Source: a virus
IMG/VR virus record: IMGVR_UViG_3300035034_000383
Location: 1 to 45,397 of that record
Reading direction: 5' to 3' (one strand)
Length of the DNA stretch: 45,397 bases
The notes under the pieces are model-generated. The model had not been told where the DNA came from, did not search any database, and was given only the letters and a program-made list of their open reading frames with translations. Shown one piece after another: positions 5,986-33,018 of this stretch. Position numbers and translations under genes: made by a program. How positions within the stretch are numbered: position 1 is the stretch's first letter; every line of letters begins with the position of its first letter.

Positions 5986-7950
5986 TTATCTTGCTTGGGC
6001 GACGGCTCTGTTTGCAGCTCCCATTGCTTGAGGACCAACTCCTCCCCCCTGAGCTCCGCCTCCTGCCTGCTCTGGTTGAGGTTGCTGTTCGTTAATAATC
6101 TTTGATGGGTCTAATCCCATCGCAGCAGCAAGCTTAGTAAGGGGTTCATCTAAGTTTACTCTGTCTCCTCCAACGGCTGCAAAGGTTTGGATTTGCTGTA
6201 GTAGCATTCCTTGTTCTGCCATTGATGAGCGTTCCCTCTTAGGGTCAAGTCCTAGAATGATATCGTAGTCGACACCTTCTCTAATGTAGTCAATAGAAAT
6301 GGCTGTGACCTCAACAGTCTCACCTCGTTCAGTTGAGGATACCATTGACCTAGCTTCTGTCTCCTCTCTTTCAGGGAGGTCATCAGTGTTCTTGTACAAC
6401 TCCAGAACACTTGTTCCTCTCTTGCCGTCTGTTAGTTTAGCTCCTGCGAATGAGAACGTAGCAAATGGTTTTGTTGTATCTGTGTCTGCCATTACTCCTG
6501 GTACCATTGTAGCGTTAGGCTGGAAGCCAAACTGTAGAATGTTTTTAATACGTAGGTTAGCCTTTCTCTTGATAGCACTGTTCACGTAACGTGCTACGGT
6601 AGTAAGGATTGCTGCGACACCTGATGCTGCCTGTTGAATTTCAAAGGCAGTTGTTCGGTCTGCACCGCCACCTGCTGTACCACTCTGCACTCCATCCATT
6701 GATGCCTCTTCCATGATACGTCTTGTGTATTCAAGAATGTACTGGTGGAAACCTGTAGGTGTTGGAAACTGCAATGGCATAATAGCATTGTTAAGTGCTA
6801 GTCCGCCTGTATCAATTGATGTTCTACGTCCTGGTCGGAGGTAGTCATCCTCAAACCCATCGAACCCTGCGGTAAGAATAGGTGTAAAGATTGATAAGAA
6901 AGACTGGTCCATCATCATGTTCTGTAGTACGTTAAGTACATCAGACATTGAACTTAACCTGTTAGGTGTAGATTTTCCGTAAAAGAATACTCCGTATGGT
7001 TCGTTGATAGCAGAAAAGAATGGAGACTCTTTGTGGTTCCACGGTAGGGGAGAAACCTCTTCGGTTGTTCCTAGTGGGTTAATCCAAATACCATTGGCCG
7101 TCAAAATAAACTCATCGTTCATGTGGTCATAGAACCAGAGAACTTCTACGCTTCCTTGTCCAACGTCTGAAGAAATAAAGTCTAGGTAGTAAGGAACAGT
7201 TCCTCCTGCTGAGATAGAAGAGGATAGTCCAGTCACTAGTTCTGATTTCTTGTAGTGTCCATACTTCTGTTGGTACTCAACAGCGGTCATAATCTTTCTT
7301 CTGAAACAGAATGGTTGCTTGTCAGTTCCCATAATACCAACACTAGCTGGGTAGTATTCTTCAAGAGGCACAAGCTCTGAGTAGAACCTTGTAGTCTTGA
7401 TTGTCTTTTCTGACACAGTCATGTTGTCACCGTGACCTTTTACTTCTCTAATCTTTTTCTTAGTGTACTCAATGTCCTCCGCACCAATGGCAGTTCCTTT
7501 AACAATGAGTTCCAGAATAAACATAGACATAAAGTTTTCATAGTCATCTAGTTCTTCTGTGTACTGATACAGGTTAGTGATAATCTTTGCCCGCATTGTA
7601 TCCTCCTCCCCCCTAGGGATTCCTGATGCAATAGGTAGCTGCTCTACTAGCTTACCGACAATTGTCAACACCTTGCTTCTAATGAATCCATCATTAAAGC
7701 CTGACTGCCAGTCTTCCATACCATCTCTCAGATATAGATTAGAGTTAAACCTCTGGACTGAATCTTCAATCATTTCAGTTACGTTCATTCCATCAAAGTA
7801 AACAAAGCTTCTGTCTCTGTCTTGCTGTGTACGTCTGAACACTTCCATGTTCTTTGATACTACTTCCATCTCTCTGTCAGAGGGTGTAAATACTTCTCCG
7901 TCAGGAAAGAGTATATCGTAGATTTTAATTGGGGCTTTCTTTGGCTGCAT
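5986..7950 (-). CDS. Portal protein
   Basis: A 654-aa protein placed one small gene downstream of the large terminase, as portals usually are. Portals form the 12-fold ring at one capsid vertex through which DNA is packaged and ejected. Features: an N-terminal helical region (about 20-140), a central mixed region with phrases such as GSVEVLWFYDHMNDEFILTA, a long helical part around residues 400-470 (EASMDGVQSGTAGGGADRTT), and a Pro/Gln/Gly-rich C-terminal tail (about 605-654). Length is near that of podovirus portals. The start at 7950 has leader aataataacaagtagtt with no clear Shine-Dalgarno. Confidence 0.85.
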   Translation of the reverse strand: MQPKKAPIKIYDILFPDGEVFTPSDREMEVVSKNMEVFRRTQQDRDRSFVYFDGMNVTEMIEDSVQRFNSNLYLRDGMEDWQSGFNDGFIRSKVLTIVGKLVEQLPIASGIPRGEEDTMRAKIITNLYQYTEELDDYENFMSMFILELIVKGTAIGAEDIEYTKKKIREVKGHGDNMTVSEKTIKTTRFYSELVPLEEYYPASVGIMGTDKQPFCFRRKIMTAVEYQQKYGHYKKSELVTGLSSSISAGGTVPYYLDFISSDVGQGSVEVLWFYDHMNDEFILTANGIWINPLGTTEEVSPLPWNHKESPFFSAINEPYGVFFYGKSTPNRLSSMSDVLNVLQNMMMDQSFLSIFTPILTAGFDGFEDDYLRPGRRTSIDTGGLALNNAIMPLQFPTPTGFHQYILEYTRRIMEEASMDGVQSGTAGGGADRTTAFEIQQAASGVAAILTTVARYVNSAIKRKANLRIKNILQFGFQPNATMVPGVMADTDTTKPFATFSFAGAKLTDGKRGTSVLELYKNTDDLPEREETEARSMVSSTERGETVEVTAISIDYIREGVDYDIILGLDPKRERSSMAEQGMLLQQIQTFAAVGGDRVNLDEPLTKLAAAMGLDPSKIINEQQPQPEQAGGGAQGGGVGPQAMGAANRAVAQAR

Positions 7951-15537: not shown

Positions 15538-16522
15538 CCGAAAGTTTGGTGTCGAGATTGAGTTCGATGTATCTAGCGAAGTTCAACTACACCATCTACA
15601 AAAGAAGTTACGGATAGAGTTTGACGGTTCACTTCGAGGGTTAAATAATCCTGGTGAATGGGTGTCAGACATACTACAAGGAGAGTCTGGTATCAACACG
15701 CTTGTTACTGCATGTTCAGTGCTCAAAAAACATGGTGCTAACTGTGACAATCCAAAGACATCCATGCACATACACCTTGATGGTATGGTTGGAGAGGGTG
15801 TGCTTAAGTCATCCAAGACAGCACCCAACACAACCAATAATGTAATTGCTATCTCAAAAAAGCTACGCTCTGAGCTGAGTTCTGGCGCAGCCATGATTCT
15901 GATACAGAATAGACAACGCTACAACGACGGCAACATGGTAACGACAGAGATTGATGGTATAATCTACTACTCCAAGGCTGCACTAGTACGTAAGCCACGG
16001 ATGAATTATGTCTACTACTACCTAGATAAACCAGACCGATTCAAGTGGCTACAAAATTCATTCTACTTCTACACCTTGTTCTCTGATGTGATGGAGAACA
16101 TTGTATCTAACTCAAGACGCTTCGGCAACATGTATTGTATTCCGCTGGGAAGTTCATATTCATTAGATGCTATCGAAGCCTGTAAAGACATGAAGGAGTT
16201 GAAAAATCTGTGGTACAAGGGTGCAATGCCATCGAGGGACTACGACAACTCACGGTATCAGAATGTTAACTTACATTCCTTCTGGTACAAGCATGGTACA
16301 CTAGAGATTCGTAGTCATGGTGGTACAATTGACCCTGTTAAGATTCTAATGTGGCTACGTCTACACCAGACTATCGTAGATAAGATGGAGGACACGACAG
16401 TAGAAGAGTTAAAGAAGATGACAGGCACACCTGAGGAGTTCATTAACTTCCTTGGTGATGACATGTTAGGTGACTATGTTAAAAGATTGTTAGGGTATTA
16501 CTCTAACGTAAAGATTAAATAA
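15524..16522 (+). CDS. Second amidoligase
   Basis: A 332-aa enzyme of the same superfamily but a different branch. Marks are FGVEIEF (about 8-14), the metal-binding strand typical of amidoligases; SMHIHLDGM (about 80-88); and GTLEIRSHGGT (about 258-268). ATP-dependent amide bond formation is expected. The start overlaps the first amidoligase by 14 bases, and the stop lies two bases before the amidotransferase start, so the three are a coupled operon. Two different ligases suggest two sequential couplings on one substrate. Confidence 0.82.
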   Translation: MLSSNRKFGVEIEFDVSSEVQLHHLQKKLRIEFDGSLRGLNNPGEWVSDILQGESGINTLVTACSVLKKHGANCDNPKTSMHIHLDGMVGEGVLKSSKTAPNTTNNVIAISKKLRSELSSGAAMILIQNRQRYNDGNMVTTEIDGIIYYSKAALVRKPRMNYVYYYLDKPDRFKWLQNSFYFYTLFSDVMENIVSNSRRFGNMYCIPLGSSYSLDAIEACKDMKELKNLWYKGAMPSRDYDNSRYQNVNLHSFWYKHGTLEIRSHGGTIDPVKILMWLRLHQTIVDKMEDTTVEELKKMTGTPEEFINFLGDDMLGDYVKRLLGYYSNVKIK

Positions 16523-19747: not shown

Positions 19748-20683
19748 ATGTTTAAGCGATACCCAAAAGTTCATCGACTAGGCAAGGAAGAAACAGACGG
19801 CATCCTTGTTGGTGACGTACACATAGAAGAAAAGATTGACGGTGCTAACGCATCTATCTGGATAGAAGATGGTAAGATTGCCATTGGCTCACGTAACAAC
19901 ACACTGTGTAGTGATGTGATGAACCCAGTAGAGGGGAACAATTACTTTAATGGTTTCCTTGAGTATGTAGCAGGACATGAGGGGATTAAAAAACTATTGA
20001 CAGAGAACCCCAACCTTAGACTGTACGGTGAGTGGCTTGTCAAGCATACCATTCACTACACAGAAACAAACTTCAATCAGTTCTATCTGTTTGACATTTC
20101 TTTTGTTAGCACACAAGAGAAAGAGGTTTGTTTATCCAAGGAGAATGTAATCAGTACAGCAAAGAGATTCGATATAAAAACACCTACCTATCATGGCATG
20201 ATTACCAACCCTACTCCTGAACAACTAATGGAGTTCGTTGGTAAGTCAACACTTGGTGTGGAGGGTGAGGGTATCGTACTAAAGAACGAAGATTACATAG
20301 ATAAGTTTGGTGACAATACTTATGCCAAGATTGTAACTCAAGCTTTCAGAGAGAATAACGGTATCACCTTTGGTGGTAACAACAAGCACAGTGACACGTA
20401 CCATGAGATGTGGGTGGTCAATAAGTTTATTACATTAGCAAGGGTTCAGAAGGTGATGCAAAAGTTACAGCCCATTACAGAAGAACGGCTAGACCTTAAG
20501 CATATACCTCGGATAACAAACACTGTCTACCATGACATGCTGACTGAGGAAATCTGGGAGATTCAAAAGAAAGTACCAGCGTTAGATTTGAAACAGCTAT
20601 CAAGGTTGTCACACAAGAAAGCCATTCAGATTTACAAAGACATATTACTAGGAACTATAAGCGTGGCAGATACACATGAATAA
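19748..20683 (+). CDS. RNA ligase (T4 Rnl2-like)
   Basis: A 311-aa nucleotidyltransferase. The nucleophilic lysine is K29 in EEKIDGANAS (motif I, KxDG). Motif III-like LYGEWLVKHT (about 93-102), motif IV EGEGIVLKNE (about 174-183) and motif V-like YAKIVT (about 193-198) follow in order. Rnl2-type ligases seal 3'-OH and 5'-phosphate RNA ends. The C-terminal part (about 215-311) is helical as in this group. The kinase-phosphatase gene just downstream would prepare broken ends, giving a T4-like RNA repair pair, possibly guarding the phage's tRNAs against host nucleases. A DNA ligase is less likely given length and motifs. Confidence 0.85.
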   Translation: MFKRYPKVHRLGKEETDGILVGDVHIEEKIDGANASIWIEDGKIAIGSRNNTLCSDVMNPVEGNNYFNGFLEYVAGHEGIKKLLTENPNLRLYGEWLVKHTIHYTETNFNQFYLFDISFVSTQEKEVCLSKENVISTAKRFDIKTPTYHGMITNPTPEQLMEFVGKSTLGVEGEGIVLKNEDYIDKFGDNTYAKIVTQAFRENNGITFGGNNKHSDTYHEMWVVNKFITLARVQKVMQKLQPITEERLDLKHIPRITNTVYHDMLTEEIWEIQKKVPALDLKQLSRLSHKKAIQIYKDILLGTISVADTHE

Positions 20684-20765: not shown

Positions 20766-20911
20766 ACACATATCTAAAGTATGTATACTACCCTGTTTTT
20801 ATCGGGCTAATGCTGATGGTAATAGGATTATTGATAATAGGAATCTACAATGAACAAACAATTGATAATGATGAAGGGACTACCAGCATCAGGCAAGAGT
20901 ACAGTAGCTAG
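20756..20911 (+). CDS. 51-aa membrane peptide overlapping the kinase gene
   Basis: ATG 20756 to TAG 20911 encodes a short N-terminal part, one membrane helix (FIGLMLMVIGLLIIGIY, about 15-31) and a polar tail that overlaps the kinase-phosphatase start by 62 bases in another frame. The membrane span lies in the non-overlapping part, which supports it. Function unknown. Confidence 0.45.
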   Translation: MDLDTYLKYVYYPVFIGLMLMVIGLLIIGIYNEQTIDNDEGTTSIRQEYSS

Positions 20912-21713
20912 TGGTCTGTGTGACTTCAAGCTAGCAGCACGAGTTAACCGTGACCTCATCCGAGAGATGTTTAACTACGGTGTGTACTCAGGTAAGAACG
21001 AGAAGAACGTAGTGTCAGCAGAGATTATGTTAGTAAAGCATCTACTAGGTCACGGGATGGAGACAGTTGTTATTGATGACTGTAACCTTAACCCAAGGAA
21101 TGAAGAGATGTGGAGAGGAGTTGCAGCAGAGTTAAATGCTGAGTTCTCAATCAACGAGGTTGACACCGACGTAGAAACGTGTATACTAAGAGACAGTCAT
21201 CGAGACAAGAGTGTTGGTGCTGACGTTATCATCAACATGGCTGTGCAGTATGGTCGATATAAAGTAGAGGGAGATGTTGTGGTGTGTGATATTGATGGCA
21301 CGATTGCGGACATCAATCATAGACTACACTATGTACAAGGAGAGACCAAGGACTGGAAGGGATTCTTTAGTGAGATGAAGGATGACCGTGTGCGTGAAGA
21401 CGTGTATACTATGCTTAAGGAATTAGAAGCAGAGGGTAAAACAATTATCTTTGTGACCGCACGACCAGAAGATTATAAGAAAGTAACAGAAGAGTGGTTG
21501 CGTTGGAATGTACCACTTACCTCACCGTTCATGATGTTCATGCGTAGAAGTGGAGACAGCCGTGACGATACTATTGTTAAGGAGCAAATCTATAACACGT
21601 ATCTAAAAGATATGAACGTCACACTCGTCATTGATGACCGACCAAAGGTTATCAGAATGTGGGAGAGTCTAGGTCTTGAGGTGCTGGATGTTGGTAACCA
21701 AGTAGAATTCTAA
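20850..21713 (+). CDS. pnkP: Polynucleotide kinase / 3'-phosphatase (T4 Pnkp-like)
   Basis: A 287-aa two-domain enzyme in T4 order. The N-terminal P-loop kinase has GLPASGKST (10-18) with Lys16; residues from VIDDCNLNPRNEEMW (about 74-88) match the usual lid and substrate region. The C-terminal HAD phosphatase has CDIDGTIADINHR (about 146-158, nucleophile D147, acid D149), VTARPEDY (about 204-211), and a late DDRPKV motif. It would add 5'-phosphate and remove 3'-phosphate from broken RNA before ligation by the Rnl2-like enzyme two genes upstream. Cotranscription from 18393 is likely. Confidence 0.92.
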   Translation: MNKQLIMMKGLPASGKSTVASGLCDFKLAARVNRDLIREMFNYGVYSGKNEKNVVSAEIMLVKHLLGHGMETVVIDDCNLNPRNEEMWRGVAAELNAEFSINEVDTDVETCILRDSHRDKSVGADVIINMAVQYGRYKVEGDVVVCDIDGTIADINHRLHYVQGETKDWKGFFSEMKDDRVREDVYTMLKELEAEGKTIIFVTARPEDYKKVTEEWLRWNVPLTSPFMMFMRRSGDSRDDTIVKEQIYNTYLKDMNVTLVIDDRPKVIRMWESLGLEVLDVGNQVEF

Positions 21714-23849: not shown

Positions 23850-23873
23850 ATGAAAATTACAATCCGTGATTAG
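23850..23873 (+). pseudogene. Orphan 7-codon start, likely relic of the SSB gene start
   Basis: ATG-AAA-ATT-ACA-ATC-CGT-GAT-TAG encodes MKITIRD. The SSB-like gene after the homing endonuclease starts MRITIAK. The similarity suggests the original SSB start was cut off when the endonuclease gene inserted, and a new start was supplied on its far side. The match is short and could be chance. Confidence 0.45.
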
Positions 23874-24261
23874 TCCTGAGTATGCAGCAGGTTTCTTTGA
23901 TGGAGAAGGATGTGTAAACGTTTCCCCAGGTAGGAATGGAGTGTACACCTTACTGGTTAGTGTGTCTAATACAAACTTAGAAATACTGAACAGCCTCAAA
24001 GAAAAGTATGGTGGGAATATACATACTAAGAATAAGTATAAAGACAACCACACACAGGCGTACACCTGGGCTGTGTGTAAATATCAGAGGTTTATTTCTG
24101 ACATACTGCCACACCTCAGGATAAAAAAGAACCAAGCAGAGCTTGCTATTAAATTCGAGAAGACAATAGACCGTTCTACTGGAAGTAAAAAGCTTGGTGA
24201 GGAAATCAAAAACAAAAGAAAAGAAATCTACATTAAAATAAAAGAATTAAATAACAAATAG
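23866..24261 (+). CDS. LAGLIDADG homing endonuclease (single motif)
   Basis: A 131-aa protein, GTG start, with one LAGLIDADG helix (AAGFFDGEG, about 7-15); the acidic residues bind metal at the cut site. Single-motif enzymes act as homodimers and cut long asymmetric sites so their gene spreads by repair. The C-terminal part is Lys-rich. No intron features were found around it, so it looks free-standing. It sits between the primase zinc-finger gene and the SSB-like gene, beside a duplicated start of the latter. No Shine-Dalgarno precedes the GTG. Confidence 0.85.
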   Translation: MISPEYAAGFFDGEGCVNVSPGRNGVYTLLVSVSNTNLEILNSLKEKYGGNIHTKNKYKDNHTQAYTWAVCKYQRFISDILPHLRIKKNQAELAIKFEKTIDRSTGSKKLGEEIKNKRKEIYIKIKELNNK

Positions 24262-27166: not shown

Positions 27167-27238
27167 ACATCTATAGCACAAAGGACAGTGCACAGGGCTT
27201 CTATCCCTATGATGTGGGTTCGATTCCTACTAGATGTA
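27167..27238 (+). tRNA. tRNA-Arg (anticodon TCT)
   Basis: A 72-nt cloverleaf. Acceptor ACATCTA/TAGATGT (7 perfect pairs), D stem GCAC/GTGC, anticodon loop CTTCTAT with TCT, T stem GTGGG/CCTAC with loop TTCGATT, discriminator A. The outermost anticodon-stem pair is a C-A mismatch. CCA is not encoded. It reads AGA, a codon common in this phage. Confidence 0.85.
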
Positions 27239-27241
27239 CAA

Positions 27242-27382
27242 GGTGTGTATGTTAGCCAAGTCATAGCTGAAAAAGTAAAGACGAGTATCCTACGGGACTC
27301 TGACGAAAACTACAATACGGGATGCCACAGCGTCAGTCCGAGATAGAAAGGACACAGCTAACGCTAGACATAGCAACACACC
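27242..27382 (+). ncRNA. Structured spacer RNA between tRNA-Arg and tRNA-Ser
   Basis: GGTGTGT (27242-27248) can pair with ACACACC (27376-27382), and GTTAGC with GCTAAC inside it. Further stems: GAGT..CC-TACG-GG..ACTC, TGACG with CGTCA, and GTCC with GGAC; TAGCTG/CAGCTA is an alternative partner choice. No T-loop or anticodon arm is present, so it is not a tRNA, and it is too short for a group I intron. It may be a small RNA or a processing scaffold. Confidence 0.45.
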
Positions 27383-27386
27383 CCAC

Positions 27387-27480
27387 GGAAGATTGGCAGA
27401 ATGGTTATTGCAACAGTATGATTTCATTCTTGAAAACTGTAAGCCGTAAGGCTTTGGGGGTTCAAGCCCCTCATCTTCCG
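27387..27480 (+). tRNA. tRNA-Ser (anticodon TGA) with an 11-nt insertion in the anticodon arm
   Basis: Acceptor GGAAGAT/ATCTTCC, D stem GCA/TGC, long variable arm GCC-GTAA-GGC, T stem GGGGG/CCCTC with loop TTCAAGC, discriminator G: a class II serine tRNA. The anticodon stem ACAGT/ACTGT and loop CTTGAAA (TGA anticodon) are perfect only if the 11 bases atgatttcatt between ACAGT and CTTGAAA are removed. The insert holds its own ATGA-TT-TCAT dyad. Without the insert the length is 83 nt, near normal. Confidence 0.75.
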
Positions 27481-27524
27481 CATGGCCACGAGAGGATTCT
27501 AGAACCCGTTTGCATCGTGGTGAT

Positions 27525-27596
27525 GTATCTTAAGTATAAATGGTAGTGCTCTGGATTCCAAACCCAGAAGACAAGGTTCGATTCCTTGGAGATGCG
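27525..27596 (+). tRNA. tRNA-Trp (anticodon CCA)
   Basis: Acceptor GTATCTT/GAGATGC (two G-U pairs), D stem GTAT/GTGC, anticodon stem CTGGA/CCCAG with loop TTCCAAA, T stem CAAGG/CCTTG with loop TTCGATT, discriminator G. A31-C39 is a mismatch. It reads UGG; the CCA anticodon would not read UGA well. Confidence 0.8.
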
Positions 27597-27724
27597 CATT
27601 AGCAGATGGTACGTATGTACCTGCTTGGTAGCAAATGATTACTGAGTTCCACGCCTCTGATACAAGCGAAACATAGGGCTGCGTGTGTGGTGATGTACAG
27701 CCACAGCCATTAAGTTGGCAGCAT

Positions 27725-27795
27725 GAGGGAGTAGAGAAATGGTGTCTCGCCAGCCTCATAAGCTGGAGAAGATGGTTCAATTCCATCCTCCCTCA
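27725..27795 (+). tRNA. tRNA-Met or tRNA-Ile2 (anticodon CAT)
   Basis: Acceptor GAGGGAG/CTCCCTC (7 perfect pairs), D stem GAGA/TCTC, anticodon stem CCAGC/GCTGG with loop CTCATAA, T stem GATGG/CCATC with loop TTCAATT, discriminator A. Sequence alone does not separate elongator Met from lysidine-modified Ile. It does not look like an initiator. Confidence 0.85.
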
Positions 27796-27854
27796 CAAAG
27801 GTTTTCTAGGTCCCATCGAGAGAATACATGTTAACCCTCTTGAAAATTCCGAAG

Positions 27855-27925
27855 CAGTTTGAAGTGTTACGGTAGCATACGCCCCTTGGACGGGTGAAGC
27901 CCAGGTTCGACTCCTGGCAGACTGA
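27855..27925 (+). tRNA. tRNA-Pro (anticodon TGG)
   Basis: Acceptor CAGTTTG/CAGACTG (one G-U), D stem GTGT/GCAT, anticodon stem CGCCC/GGGTG with loop CTTGGAC, T stem CCAGG/CCTGG with loop TTCGACT, discriminator A. Last tRNA of the cluster. Confidence 0.82.
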
Positions 27926-28044
27926 CAAAGCATATCACAGAACTTAAAACCCTCAGTGATGTGCCTACCCATTAGATATTGGGTCGCCTAGAAGTTTTGT
28001 ACTTTTCCTGCTTCCCTCGGGATAGCTTGTAATCACGCATCAGT
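27926..28044. other. Spacer after the tRNAs with hairpins
   Basis: No gene seen. CATATCAC pairs with GTGATGTG (8 bp) and ACCCA with TGGGT. These could be tRNA 3' processing or partial termination signals before the next gene. Confidence 0.4.
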
Positions 28045-28509
28045 GTGGTGGGCATTAAGCCAAAGCTTATATCTTATAACATAGTAGAAATACTAGTAAC
28101 AATGGTAACAATGTTGAGCGTACACGGTGGCTCAACGGTTCCTACATACGAATACAATTATGAATCGGTAGAGACGATTACTATACAAATCAAAACACCA
28201 ATTATAGAAGAGGTTAAAGAGGAGGTTATCGCTCCCTCTATTTCTGTTCTATGTAACTGTTATGCTTATGTTAAGCAAACATTTACAGACCTACCCAGAA
28301 CAAAGACGATACTTAATAACCTGTCTGAGTCAGGTGAGGTGGCAGTATTTTACTACCCCTCATCAGGTGTACATCACTACGCAGTGGTGACACATGAGTC
28401 GGAGGATAGCTTGACAATTAGTGAGACTAATTTCAAGACATGTAAGAAGACGGAGAGAACTATCTCTAAAGATTACAGCAGACTATTAGGTTTCTATTCA
28501 GTAGGGTAG
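28045..28509 (+). CDS. CHAP/NlpC-like cysteine peptidase or amidase with N-terminal membrane segment
   Basis: A 154-aa protein, GTG start (an ATG at 28102 is an alternative). A hydrophobic stretch (about 13-27, NIVEILVTMVTMLSVHG) suggests signal or anchor. The catalytic-type core has NCYAYVK (Cys about residue 71), GEVAVFYYPS, then HHYAVVTH (His about 112-113) and SETNF (Asn), the Cys-His-Asn order of CHAP/NlpC enzymes that cut cell-wall peptides. It lies after the tRNA cluster, away from the other amidase. It could be a second lysin or an entry enzyme. Enzyme class is inferred from motif order only. Confidence 0.6.
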   Translation: MVGIKPKLISYNIVEILVTMVTMLSVHGGSTVPTYEYNYESVETITIQIKTPIIEEVKEEVIAPSISVLCNCYAYVKQTFTDLPRTKTILNNLSESGEVAVFYYPSSGVHHYAVVTHESEDSLTISETNFKTCKKTERTISKDYSRLLGFYSVG

Positions 28510-30388: not shown

Positions 30389-30890
30389 AGTAATTATCAC
30401 TCACCACACAGGAGGTACAGACGCTTTCCCTCTTGCTGATTCATCCAAGGCCAAGGTTGCAGATATCGACATCTGGCACCGAGCCCGCTGGCCTGGCTTC
30501 AGGTCTACGTTAGGCTACTGGGTTGGATATCAATACGTGATTGAAAGGAATGGTAAGGTTACACAAACAAGAAGTAACAGTGAGGAGGGTGCACATACAC
30601 GTGGTATGAACAGAAGTTCTATTGGAGTTTGTTTTTCAGGCAACTTCGACTTGACTATGCCGACACGTGCACAAATGAAATCATGGTACACCCTGCACCG
30701 TAAGCTTCAGAAGGCATACCCTGGTATTACTACTTACCCTCATAGGAAATACTCAACCAAGACCTGTCACGGCAGAAATCTACCAGACGATTACTTTACC
30801 GATGAGTTCCAGATTCGCTCCCTTACTGAGTTGTTAAACCAACTTAAGGCTAAACTTGCATCGTTTTTATCAGGTAACAGAATGAAATAA
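30366..30890 (+). CDS. N-acetylmuramoyl-L-alanine amidase (T7 lysozyme-like endolysin)
   Basis: A 174-aa amidase-2 domain protein. Zinc ligands by comparison to T7 lysozyme: H13 or H14 (IITHH), H126 and C134 (H-x7-C spacing is kept), with K132 two residues before the Cys as in T7. Other family phrases: GYWVGYQYVIERNGK (about 50-64) and EEGAHTRGMNRSSIGVCF (about 73-90). It cuts the peptidoglycan amide bond for lysis. No signal peptide. The last base of its TAA is the A of the chaperonin ATG. Confidence 0.9.
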   Translation: MTAINVPKVIITHHTGGTDAFPLADSSKAKVADIDIWHRARWPGFRSTLGYWVGYQYVIERNGKVTQTRSNSEEGAHTRGMNRSSIGVCFSGNFDLTMPTRAQMKSWYTLHRKLQKAYPGITTYPHRKYSTKTCHGRNLPDDYFTDEFQIRSLTELLNQLKAKLASFLSGNRMK

Positions 30891-32404
30891 TGACAAAGAT
30901 TATAAAGAAGTTTGACCCAGAAGTTGTACGGAGAGCAGTTGACAGAATTGCAGAGCCTGTCATCCAGACCTTGACACCTCTAGGAAATAATGTTATGTTT
31001 GATAAAGACCTCGTGTCCCTCATCACTAACGATGGTGCTAACATTGCAAAGTTAATCGACTCTGAGGACGAGGTAGAGGATACAATCATCCAGATGGTTA
31101 AGTATGGTTCACTGTCCACCAACCAATTGGCTGGTGATGGTACATCATCCACCATTCTACTCACGCAGAAGCTGGTTCACATGGGACTTAACATGATTGC
31201 GTCAGGCACTAAGCCCATGAAACTAAAGAAGGAGTTCACTGAACTCAAGGATAAAATCCTAGAAAAAGCCGAGCCTTTGAAGAGAGAGCTTACTGAGTCT
31301 ACCCTGCTAGATGTCGCTATGATTTCATCAGGTGGTGACGCGGTGCTGGCTGCCAATGTGGTAGACATCACAGACACAGCGGGTATCGACGGTATGGTGT
31401 TCATCAATGAGAGCAAGTCTCAGAAGACACGCATCATCAAAGACACAGGCTATAACCTAGACGAGCCAATGGTTGACCCTATCCTGGGCAACGTGGGTCA
31501 AGGTAAGGCAGACTTCAACAACCCTCATGTGTTCGTTACTGACAAGAAACTGTATCACATCGAGGAGTGTAGAGAAATACTAGAGAGAGCCTACGAGTTC
31601 GGTGTCAGAGACCTTATCATCGTAGCAAGAGACTTTGCGGGAGAATCAAAGGGCTATCTAATCAGCCAGCACATGGACAAGGATGTTCCTTTGAACATTC
31701 TATTGATTAAGATGACTACCCCTGACAATGACTTCACTCAGATTTATGACCTAGCTACCTACCTCGGTGCTACTGTTGTATCAGAGAAGATTGGTAGCTT
31801 CAAGGGTAAGCTTAACGCTTCGTACTATACGATGGCAGAAAGGGTGTACTCATTGGGGGCCAAGTCTATCTTTGTATCTGACCAGAAAGCAAACCCAGAG
31901 TTATCAATGCTGATTGCTGACGTTAGAGCTAAGAAGGAAGAGACACCAGAGGATACTAAACTATCCAGAAGACTGGCCTCTCTGACTGCGGGTACTGTAA
32001 CGCTGGAGGTTAGTGCACCAACAGGTCCAGAGATGAGGGAGCTTATCTATCGGTACGAAGATGCTATCAACGCTACTCGTTCTGCCCTTAGGTCTGGTGT
32101 TGTCACTGGCGGAGGTCTAACTCTCTTTGCGTCAACTAGAAACCTGTCTAATACAGGACAAGAGTTCGGTCTCGCATCAATCAAACAGATTGCAGAGAAC
32201 TGTGGCTTGGACTTTGACCAGAGTAAGTATGGACCAGAGGTAGGTTACAATGCACGCACCGAAGAATTCTCCAACCTGGCAGATGACGGTGTCGTTGAGC
32301 CATTCGATGTGTTTAAGTACACAGTTATCAATGCGTTCAGTGTTGCTATTGCCATCCTTACAACAGGATATTTTATTGTCAATCGGGTAGAGAAAAAAGA
32401 TTAG
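30890..32404 (+). CDS. groEL: Phage-encoded GroEL-like chaperonin
   Basis: A 504-aa chaperonin, about 40 residues shorter than E. coli GroEL and lacking the GGM tail. ATPase marks are kept: NDGANI (Asp about 48, matching GroEL D52), AGDGTSS (about 82-88), GVVTGGGLTL (about 403-412) and YEDAINATRSA with the Asp matching D398. The apical domain (about 185-370) is divergent. It would fold phage or host proteins with the GroES-like protein encoded two genes on. It may suit a capsid or enzyme the host chaperonin folds poorly. The start overlaps the amidase stop by one base. Confidence 0.92.
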   Translation: MTKIIKKFDPEVVRRAVDRIAEPVIQTLTPLGNNVMFDKDLVSLITNDGANIAKLIDSEDEVEDTIIQMVKYGSLSTNQLAGDGTSSTILLTQKLVHMGLNMIASGTKPMKLKKEFTELKDKILEKAEPLKRELTESTLLDVAMISSGGDAVLAANVVDITDTAGIDGMVFINESKSQKTRIIKDTGYNLDEPMVDPILGNVGQGKADFNNPHVFVTDKKLYHIEECREILERAYEFGVRDLIIVARDFAGESKGYLISQHMDKDVPLNILLIKMTTPDNDFTQIYDLATYLGATVVSEKIGSFKGKLNASYYTMAERVYSLGAKSIFVSDQKANPELSMLIADVRAKKEETPEDTKLSRRLASLTAGTVTLEVSAPTGPEMRELIYRYEDAINATRSALRSGVVTGGGLTLFASTRNLSNTGQEFGLASIKQIAENCGLDFDQSKYGPEVGYNARTEEFSNLADDGVVEPFDVFKYTVINAFSVAIAILTTGYFIVNRVEKKD

Positions 32405-32528: not shown

Positions 32529-32777
32529 ATGAAAGAAGACAGCAAAGTAAAAAAAGTAGCAGAGCAAATAGAAAAGATTCTTATTAAGAATGAGATGGCC
32601 TTACAGCCATTCATGAACAGAAGTATCCAAGGTACGTACGCTGCCGTAAGGTTGGTGAGTACTAAGGAGGAACCTGTATCAGATAATCAAACTAACGATG
32701 CTAACCAATCAACAGATACAACAGAAGATAAAGGAGTTGGAGAAAAAGTCGGAGCTGCTGGAGATTCACAATCATAA
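32529..32777 (+). CDS. 82-aa hypothetical protein
   Basis: A small protein with a helical, basic N-terminal half (MKEDSKVKKVAEQIEKILIK) and a disordered Asn/Thr/Asp/Gln-rich tail (about 50-82). It overlaps the GroES-like gene by 80 bases in another frame, mostly within its disordered tail. It lies between the chaperonin and co-chaperonin and may assist them; unproven. Confidence 0.55.
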   Translation: MKEDSKVKKVAEQIEKILIKNEMALQPFMNRSIQGTYAAVRLVSTKEEPVSDNQTNDANQSTDTTEDKGVGEKVGAAGDSQS

Positions 32778-33018
32778 AACAATTGGTGAATGGATTGTGG
32801 TTGTACCTACAGAAATCAAAGAGACTGGCGTTACCAGCAGGAGTAGCCAGTTCGAGGATAGACCAGGAGTTGGTCTTGTTGTATCGGTAGGGGATACTGT
32901 GGACAACATGAAAGAGGGAGATGTAATCTTCTTCGGTAAATATTCCCACGTAAAGATTACCCACAACGAAATCGAGTATCTTATCATGAGGTCAGAAGAT
33001 GTGTACTGTGTTGCCTAA
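32698..33018 (+). CDS. groES: GroES-like co-chaperonin
   Basis: A 106-aa protein. After an N-terminal helix (about 1-25) not found in GroES, it has the barrel pattern: EWIVVVPTEIKETGV (about 31-45), a mobile-loop-type stretch (about 44-56), GVGLVVSVGDTVDNMKEGDV (about 57-76) and IFFGKYSHVKI then EYLIMRSEDVYCV at the end, matching GroES strands. It caps the GroEL-like ring. Gene order (EL then ES) is reversed compared with most bacteria. Confidence 0.82.
   Translation: MLTNQQIQQKIKELEKKSELLEIHNHKTIGEWIVVVPTEIKETGVTSRSSQFEDRPGVGLVVSVGDTVDNMKEGDVIFFGKYSHVKITHNEIEYLIMRSEDVYCVA

What the first reader, a model, noticed from the sequence alone, without database searches (positions are those of the whole stretch)
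27387..27480. tRNA-Ser(TGA) split by an 11-nt insert in the anticodon arm
Removing atgatttcatt restores a perfect ACAGT/CTTGAAA/ACTGT arm. The insert itself forms ATGA-TT-TCAT. It could be a mini-intron cut out by an enzyme and rejoined by the phage's own kinase and ligase, an inactive tRNA, or a decoy for an anticodon nuclease. The presence of RNA repair genes makes splicing testable.
Basis: partly seen in the sequence, partly recalled or inferred. Interest (0 to 1): 0.72.

Follow-up and report, generated by a model that had tools for sequence, protein, structure and literature searches.

The report
Phage tRNA-Ser interrupted in anticodon loop
A virus of bacteria carries an otherwise perfect serine tRNA gene with 11 extra bases just before the anticodon, so the RNA as encoded should not decode; whether the virus trims it out or the gene is simply broken is not known, but other, unrelated phages conserve a short insert at exactly the same place in a leucine tRNA.

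Summary
Confirmed: window 27387-27480 (+) is a class II tRNA-Ser(UGA) whose stems are all intact, with 11 nt (27418-27428, ATGATTTCATT) between nucleotides 31 and 32. Intact phage homologues show the uninterrupted CUUGAAA loop. The phage also encodes a T4-like Pnkp and an Rnl2-type RNA ligase, but no EndA, RtcB or recognised anticodon nuclease. The insert's pairing with the anticodon is not significant, and "removal restores the arm" would be true of any insertion into a working tRNA gene, so the window alone does not show splicing. Pattern scans of IMG/VR and about 85,000 genomes found no second tRNA-Ser like it. A scan for leucine tRNAs, however, found 11 distinct phage tRNA-Leu(CAA)-like genes with a conserved 6-nt insert (AUAAUA) at exactly the same 31/32 position, with compensated stem changes. 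In another large phage a tRNA-Leu-like gene with an enlarged loop lies 108 nt downstream of an RNA-ligase gene. Anticodon-loop inserts are therefore sometimes retained features in phages. For this single gene I rank a recent interruption (0.40) slightly above a mini-intron (0.30) or an unspliced retained RNA (0.25).

The parts
27387..27480 (+). tRNA-Ser(UGA) gene with an 11-nt insert (94 nt, no encoded CCA)
   Evidence: ARAGORN '???'; Rfam RF00005 41.5 bits; intact homologues
27413..27417 (+). 5' strand of the anticodon stem, ACAGT (nt 27-31)
   Evidence: direct reading; pairs with 27436-27440; pair probabilities 0.86-0.93
27418..27428 (+). 11-nt insert ATGATTTCATT (boundaries ambiguous by one base for the same product)
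   Evidence: comparison with uninterrupted homologues; enumeration of registers
27429..27435 (+). canonical tRNA-Ser anticodon loop CTTGAAA; anticodon TGA at 27431-27433
   Evidence: direct reading; identical in the intact homologues
27436..27440 (+). 3' strand of the anticodon stem, ACTGT (nt 39-43)
   Evidence: direct reading
27441..27455 (+). long variable arm AAGCC-GTAA-GGCTT-T, class II (Ser)
   Evidence: direct reading; fold
19748..20683 (+). Rnl2-type RNA ligase (motif I EKIDGAN)
   Evidence: Pfam RNA_ligase 4.7e-24; phrog_548 4.4e-39; profile matches T4 Rnl2 structures, E 4.6e-6
20850..21713 (+). T4-type polynucleotide kinase/phosphatase (Pnkp)
   Evidence: phrog_505 8.4e-63; T4 Pnkp 1ltq E 5e-17 over the whole length; HAD_PNKP 1.5e-27
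27167..27239 (+). neighbouring tRNA-Arg(UCU)
27525..27596 (+). neighbouring tRNA, CCA (Trp) anticodon, missed by ARAGORN; normal-length loop
   Evidence: Rfam 41.0 bits
27725..27796 (+). neighbouring tRNA-Met-type (CAU)
27855..27926 (+). neighbouring tRNA-Pro(UGG)

Best explanation
A functional phage tRNA-Ser(UGA) gene has recently taken up an 11-nt insertion immediately 5' of nucleotide 32 of the anticodon loop. The primary transcript folds as a tRNA body, but its 18-nt loop pairs back on the anticodon, so it should not decode UCA. On this reading it is a non-decoding tRNA not yet degraded by further mutation, in a cluster where tRNAs are readily swapped. Shown: the insert, the intact body, the predicted fold, the homologues without insert, and the tRNA exchange at this site in the closest relative. 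Inferred: that the RNA is not spliced and that the event is recent.
For: It is a single occurrence: specific pattern scans of IMG/VR (2.9 million contigs) and 84,980 prokaryote genomes found no other tRNA-Ser(UGA) with an insert here outside archaea. The only close relative covering this place, L002, has a tRNA-Tyr instead, so the slot is replaceable. No EndA or RtcB gene was found anywhere in the record, and no group I intron. The insert has no significant internal structure. A perfect arm after deletion is expected of any insertion into an intact gene. TCA is the commonest Ser codon (33%), so the ancestral tRNA would have been useful.
Against: No base pair of the body is broken; the neighbouring Trp tRNA in the same cluster shows mismatches while this one shows none, so a decayed state must be very young. 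Phages elsewhere conserve an insert at the identical position.
Confidence: 0.4

Rival explanations
1. Mini-intron: an endonuclease (a host anticodon nuclease or an unrecognised phage enzyme) cuts on both sides of the insert. [quoted passage not shown]
For: Full T4-type Pnkp plus an Rnl2-type ligase in the same genome. Four cut registers all yield a UGA loop with U33. The predicted fold is a bulge-helix-loop with one cut site in the bulge and one in the apical loop. A conserved insert exists at the same 31/32 site in 11 distinct phage tRNA-Leu(CAA)-like genes. In phage G014 a tRNA-Leu-like gene with an enlarged loop starts 108 nt after an RNA-ligase gene. Rnl2-family ligases have been suggested to remove tRNA introns in the archaeal virus HGTV-1 (PMC8651126).
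Against: No candidate endonuclease was found. T4 repair of anticodon breaks uses Rnl1, not Rnl2 (PMC3400036). The site is not the canonical 37/38 position. The conserved Leu insert varies as little as the loop beside it, unlike typical introns. Most Leu-insert records are fragments, and only the 257-kb one shows a ligase.
Confidence: 0.3
2. Retained unspliced RNA: the enlarged loop is kept on purpose, as a decoy, a nuclease-resistant stand-in or a regulatory tRNA-like RNA, and the insert is never removed.
For: The Leu-like family keeps a 13-nt loop almost unchanged across 11 phages while its arms covary, as expected of a functional unspliced loop. Several large phages carry many tRNA-like RNAs with odd middles. 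Phage tRNAs are known to escape anticodon nucleases through loop mutations (PMC10264068).
Against: In the window only the loop is abnormal; the Leu-like family differs from ordinary tRNA in several features (A1-U72, 31-nt variable arm). A loop whose anticodon is buried is a poor mimic for an anticodon nuclease. No second genome shows this Ser insert.
Confidence: 0.25
3. Sequencing or assembly artefact of the metagenome contig.
For: Only one contig covers the site; no read data were available here.
Against: An 11-nt insertion at a plain, non-repetitive site is not a usual short-read error, and the gene sits in an intact cluster.
Confidence: 0.05

Closest known systems
Bacterial/phage tRNA-Ser(UGA), e.g. 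Flavobacterium phage immuto tRNA-Ser (MW353175)
   Same: Acceptor GGAAGAU/AUCUUCC, G73, GGCAGA D arm, CUUGAAA loop sequence, ACUGU stem strand, T arm
   Different: The window gene has 11 extra nt between nt 31 and 32, giving an 18-nt loop
Phage tRNA-Leu(CAA)-like genes with a conserved 6-nt AUAAUA insert (this work; L127, L186, L190, L203, L212, L215, L220, L234, L236, L259, L283)
   Same: Insert at exactly the 31/32 position of the anticodon arm, in uncultivated phages
   Different: Leu body, 6 nt rather than 11, conserved across phages, 31-nt variable arm, A1-U72; hosts unknown
Archaeal and eukaryotic tRNA introns removed by EndA/TSEN
   Same: Short insert in the anticodon arm; some archaeal tRNA-Ser have 13-15-nt inserts (L134, L140, L141)
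   Different: Canonical site is 37/38; needs EndA, which is absent here; this phage carries a peptidoglycan amidase, so its host is a bacterium
T4 Pnkp/RNA ligase repair of tRNA cut by PrrC
   Same: The same healing and sealing gene kinds in the same genome
   Different: T4 reseals host tRNA-Lys without removing anything, and uses Rnl1; here the ligase is Rnl2-type and no nuclease is known
Group I introns in bacterial tRNA anticodon loops
   Same: Interrupt the anticodon loop in bacteria (general knowledge)
   Different: Self-splicing and hundreds of nt long; 11 nt cannot be a ribozyme and no Rfam match was found

Membership tests
functional class II tRNA-Ser(UGA) | intact acceptor, D, variable and T arms with G73 | tested here: met
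   direct reading
functional class II tRNA-Ser(UGA) | 7-nt anticodon loop with U33 and anticodon UGA in the encoded RNA | tested here: not met
   18-nt loop; UGA paired with probability about 0.9
protein-spliced tRNA intron (EndA/TSEN type) | insert at canonical 37/38 | tested here: not met
   insert lies between 31 and 32
protein-spliced tRNA intron (EndA/TSEN type) | bulge-helix-bulge or relaxed motif at the junctions | tested here: inconclusive
   4-nt bulge, 5-bp helix, 4-nt loop predicted, but 7-12% of random or shuffled inserts do as well
protein-spliced tRNA intron (EndA/TSEN type) | splicing endonuclease gene in the same genome | tested here: not met
   no PF01974 match in the record; the host is not held
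tRNA spliced by phage RNA repair enzymes | Pnkp and RNA ligase genes present | tested here: met
tRNA spliced by phage RNA repair enzymes | joined RNA without the insert in cells | not testable with these tools
   needs RNA sequencing of infected cells
group I intron | conserved catalytic core | tested here: not met
   insert is 11 nt; no Rfam intron match
conserved phage 31/32-insert tRNA family (Leu type) | insert conserved in several genomes with compensated stems | tested here: not met
   met for the Leu genes; for the window Ser only one genome is known

The most novel reading that the evidence does not exclude
Some bacteriophages have protein-spliced mini-introns in their tRNA genes, placed between nucleotides 31 and 32, removed by a nuclease and rejoined by the phage's own kinase/phosphatase and RNA ligase. 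This would be a tRNA splicing pathway in bacteria independent of group I introns and of EndA.
Probability: 0.28. Interest if true: 0.92.

Novelty: new variant of a known kind. Interest (0 to 1): 0.58.

Why it matters
Bacteria are thought to have only self-splicing introns in their tRNAs. A short insert at one fixed place in phage tRNAs, in genomes carrying RNA healing and sealing enzymes, would give those enzymes a role beyond damage repair, or would reveal a class of non-decoding tRNA-like RNAs kept by phages. Either outcome is decidable with one small-RNA sequencing experiment. If instead the gene is merely broken, the conserved Leu-type insert still needs explaining.

Tried and rejected
Exact search for the 3' half of this tRNA in IMG/VR: no other contig. 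Near and distant BLAST in phages and plasmids: only the immuto tRNA-Ser and weak matches, nothing in plasmids. First Ser pattern: 22 loci, none a tRNA with this insert; L058 is a partial tRNA-Ser 3' end. Second, stricter Ser pattern: archaeal introns, register false matches, masked Ns, two duplicated MAG genes (L135, L142) and tRNA-like RNAs. Odd anticodon arms in RNA-ligase phages were looked at: L107 (17-nt loop flanked by ATAG repeats), L069, and L040 (6+6-nt stem extension); none is a clear parallel. Archaeal host with EndA considered and rejected because of the peptidoglycan amidase and the bacterial-type tRNA. Insert-anticodon pairing as a splicing signal: not significant.

Full report
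Observation. The window is a 45.4-kb IMG/VR phage record with terminase, portal-like and GroEL-like genes and a peptidoglycan amidase, hence a bacterial host. Five tRNA genes lie at 27167-27926. The second, 27387-27480, is called 'tRNA-???' by ARAGORN and matches the Rfam tRNA model at 41.5 bits. Read by hand it is a class II tRNA-Ser(UGA): acceptor GGAAGAT/ATCTTCC, G73, D stem GCA/TGC, a 5-bp variable arm, and T arm GGGGG-TTCAAGC-CCCTC. The anticodon arm is ACAGT-[ATGATTTCATT]-CTTGAAA-ACTGT. Uninterrupted phage homologues (Flavobacterium phage immuto; G002 16346-16431) have CTTGAAA directly after the 5' stem, which fixes the insert at 27418-27428, between nt 31 and 32. Of all contiguous 11-nt removals, four registers leave a 5-bp stem, U33 and anticodon UGA.

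Is it more than chance? The tRNA is certain. The 'perfect restoration' is not independent evidence, because any insertion into a working tRNA gene would show it. The insert pairs with the anticodon in the predicted fold (UUUCA/UGAAA), with pair probabilities near 0.9 over the anticodon, but 7% of random window 11-mers and 12% of shuffled inserts give an equally stable, equally blocked arm. The insert's exact 11-mer occurs once more in the window, at 30674 on the minus strand, which is weak evidence for a templated origin.

RNA repair genes. 20850-21713 is a complete T4-type Pnkp (T4 Pnkp structure 1ltq at E 5e-17; phrog_505 8e-63). 19748-20683 is an Rnl2-type RNA ligase (profile match to T4 Rnl2; it stays below the strict Rnl2 equivalog cut-off). 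No EndA, no RtcB and no recognised anticodon nuclease was found. In T4, tRNA breaks made by PrrC are healed by Pnkp and sealed by Rnl1 (PMC3400036), so an Rnl2-type ligase is not the textbook partner. Rnl2-family ligases have been suggested to remove tRNA introns in the archaeal virus HGTV-1 (PMC8651126).

Relatives. The closest relative covering the cluster, L002 (77% identity in the neighbouring exonuclease), keeps tRNA-Arg and a 147-nt conserved element but has a normal tRNA-Tyr in place of the Ser. Contig L035 has an identical ligase but does not reach the cluster. Two pattern scans for tRNA-Ser(UGA) with extra bases before CTTGAAA in IMG/VR and one in 84,980 genomes found no bacterial or viral parallel, only archaeal introns, duplications, register artefacts and odd tRNA-like RNAs.

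A parallel at the same position. One of those odd phages, L127, led to a scan for leucine tRNAs with extra bases in the same place. It returned 11 distinct tRNA-Leu(CAA)-like genes from 11 phage contigs, each with a 6-nt insert, AUAAUA in nine and ACAAUA or AUAGUA in one each, exactly between nt 31 and CUCAAAA. In the alignment 98% of cells of the tRNA structure pair, five pairs have changes on both sides, and covariation exceeds all 500 shuffles. One of the compensated pairs is the loop-closing pair of the anticodon stem (GGGAC/GTCCT in L203). Caveat: these sequences are closely related and the structure was drawn from them. These RNAs are otherwise unusual (A1-U72, 31-nt variable arm), and their phages carry near-complete sets of normal tRNAs with no normal Leu(CAA) detected in the stretches examined. 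The only large record of the group (257 kb) has an RNA ligase and a possible kinase; the others are fragments. A second family, with a longer enlarged loop (three contigs), includes G014, where the tRNA-like gene begins 108 nt after an RNA ligase gene. So inserts in this loop are retained features in some phages. This raises the odds that the window's insert is tolerated or processed, but it does not show it.

Judgement. Three readings remain: recent interruption (0.40), mini-intron (0.30), and retained unspliced RNA (0.25), with artefact at 0.05. The first is simplest because only one genome shows the insert and no cutting enzyme is known. The complete integrity of the body and the recurrence of the site in other phages keep the others close.

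Literature. Phage tRNAs with loop substitutions that evade anticodon nucleases are described (PMC10264068). My searches of the open-access library found no report of short inserts in phage tRNA anticodon loops; subscription papers and preprints outside that library were not searchable.

Noticed in passing
27239-27386: A 147-nt element between tRNA-Arg and the interrupted tRNA is 86% identical in L002 (4419-4566) although the tRNA after it is swapped; it folds better than all shuffles (z -3.35), keeps pairs through double changes, and has no Rfam match: probably an undescribed structured phage RNA.
   Followed up: partly
27949-28080: A second stretch after the last tRNA is conserved at 66% with L002 4894-5029 and looks RNA-like.
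   Followed up: no
L127, L129, L130, L179, L329-L341: Large aquatic phages carry families of tRNA-like RNAs that share the acceptor AGTCA[AG]G and a T arm but have very different middles, some with 44-57-nt anticodon-region inserts conserved between phages.
   Followed up: partly
L339:5990-7123 and 7232-7334: An RNA ligase gene ends 108 nt before a tRNA-Leu-like gene with an enlarged anticodon loop (phage G014).
   Followed up: partly
L040:10001-10885: The phage's RNA ligase reads through with TGA as glycine (positions of conserved Gly), pointing to a host of the Gracilibacteria type (code 25).
   Followed up: partly
L040:2652-2739: A tRNA whose anticodon stem is extended by complementary 6-nt pieces on both sides (AAAGTA/TACTTT) around a normal Gln(UUG) loop.
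   Followed up: no
L142 (reverse strand, near 7633): A gammaproteobacterial MAG tRNA-Ser has a 15-nt tandem duplication of loop and 3' stem.
   Followed up: no
23866-24261: A free-standing LAGLIDADG endonuclease gene lies just after the primase zinc-ribbon gene.
   Followed up: no
30890-32404 and 32698-33018: A GroEL-like chaperonin gene followed by a GroES-sized gene in a 45-kb phage genome.
   Followed up: no
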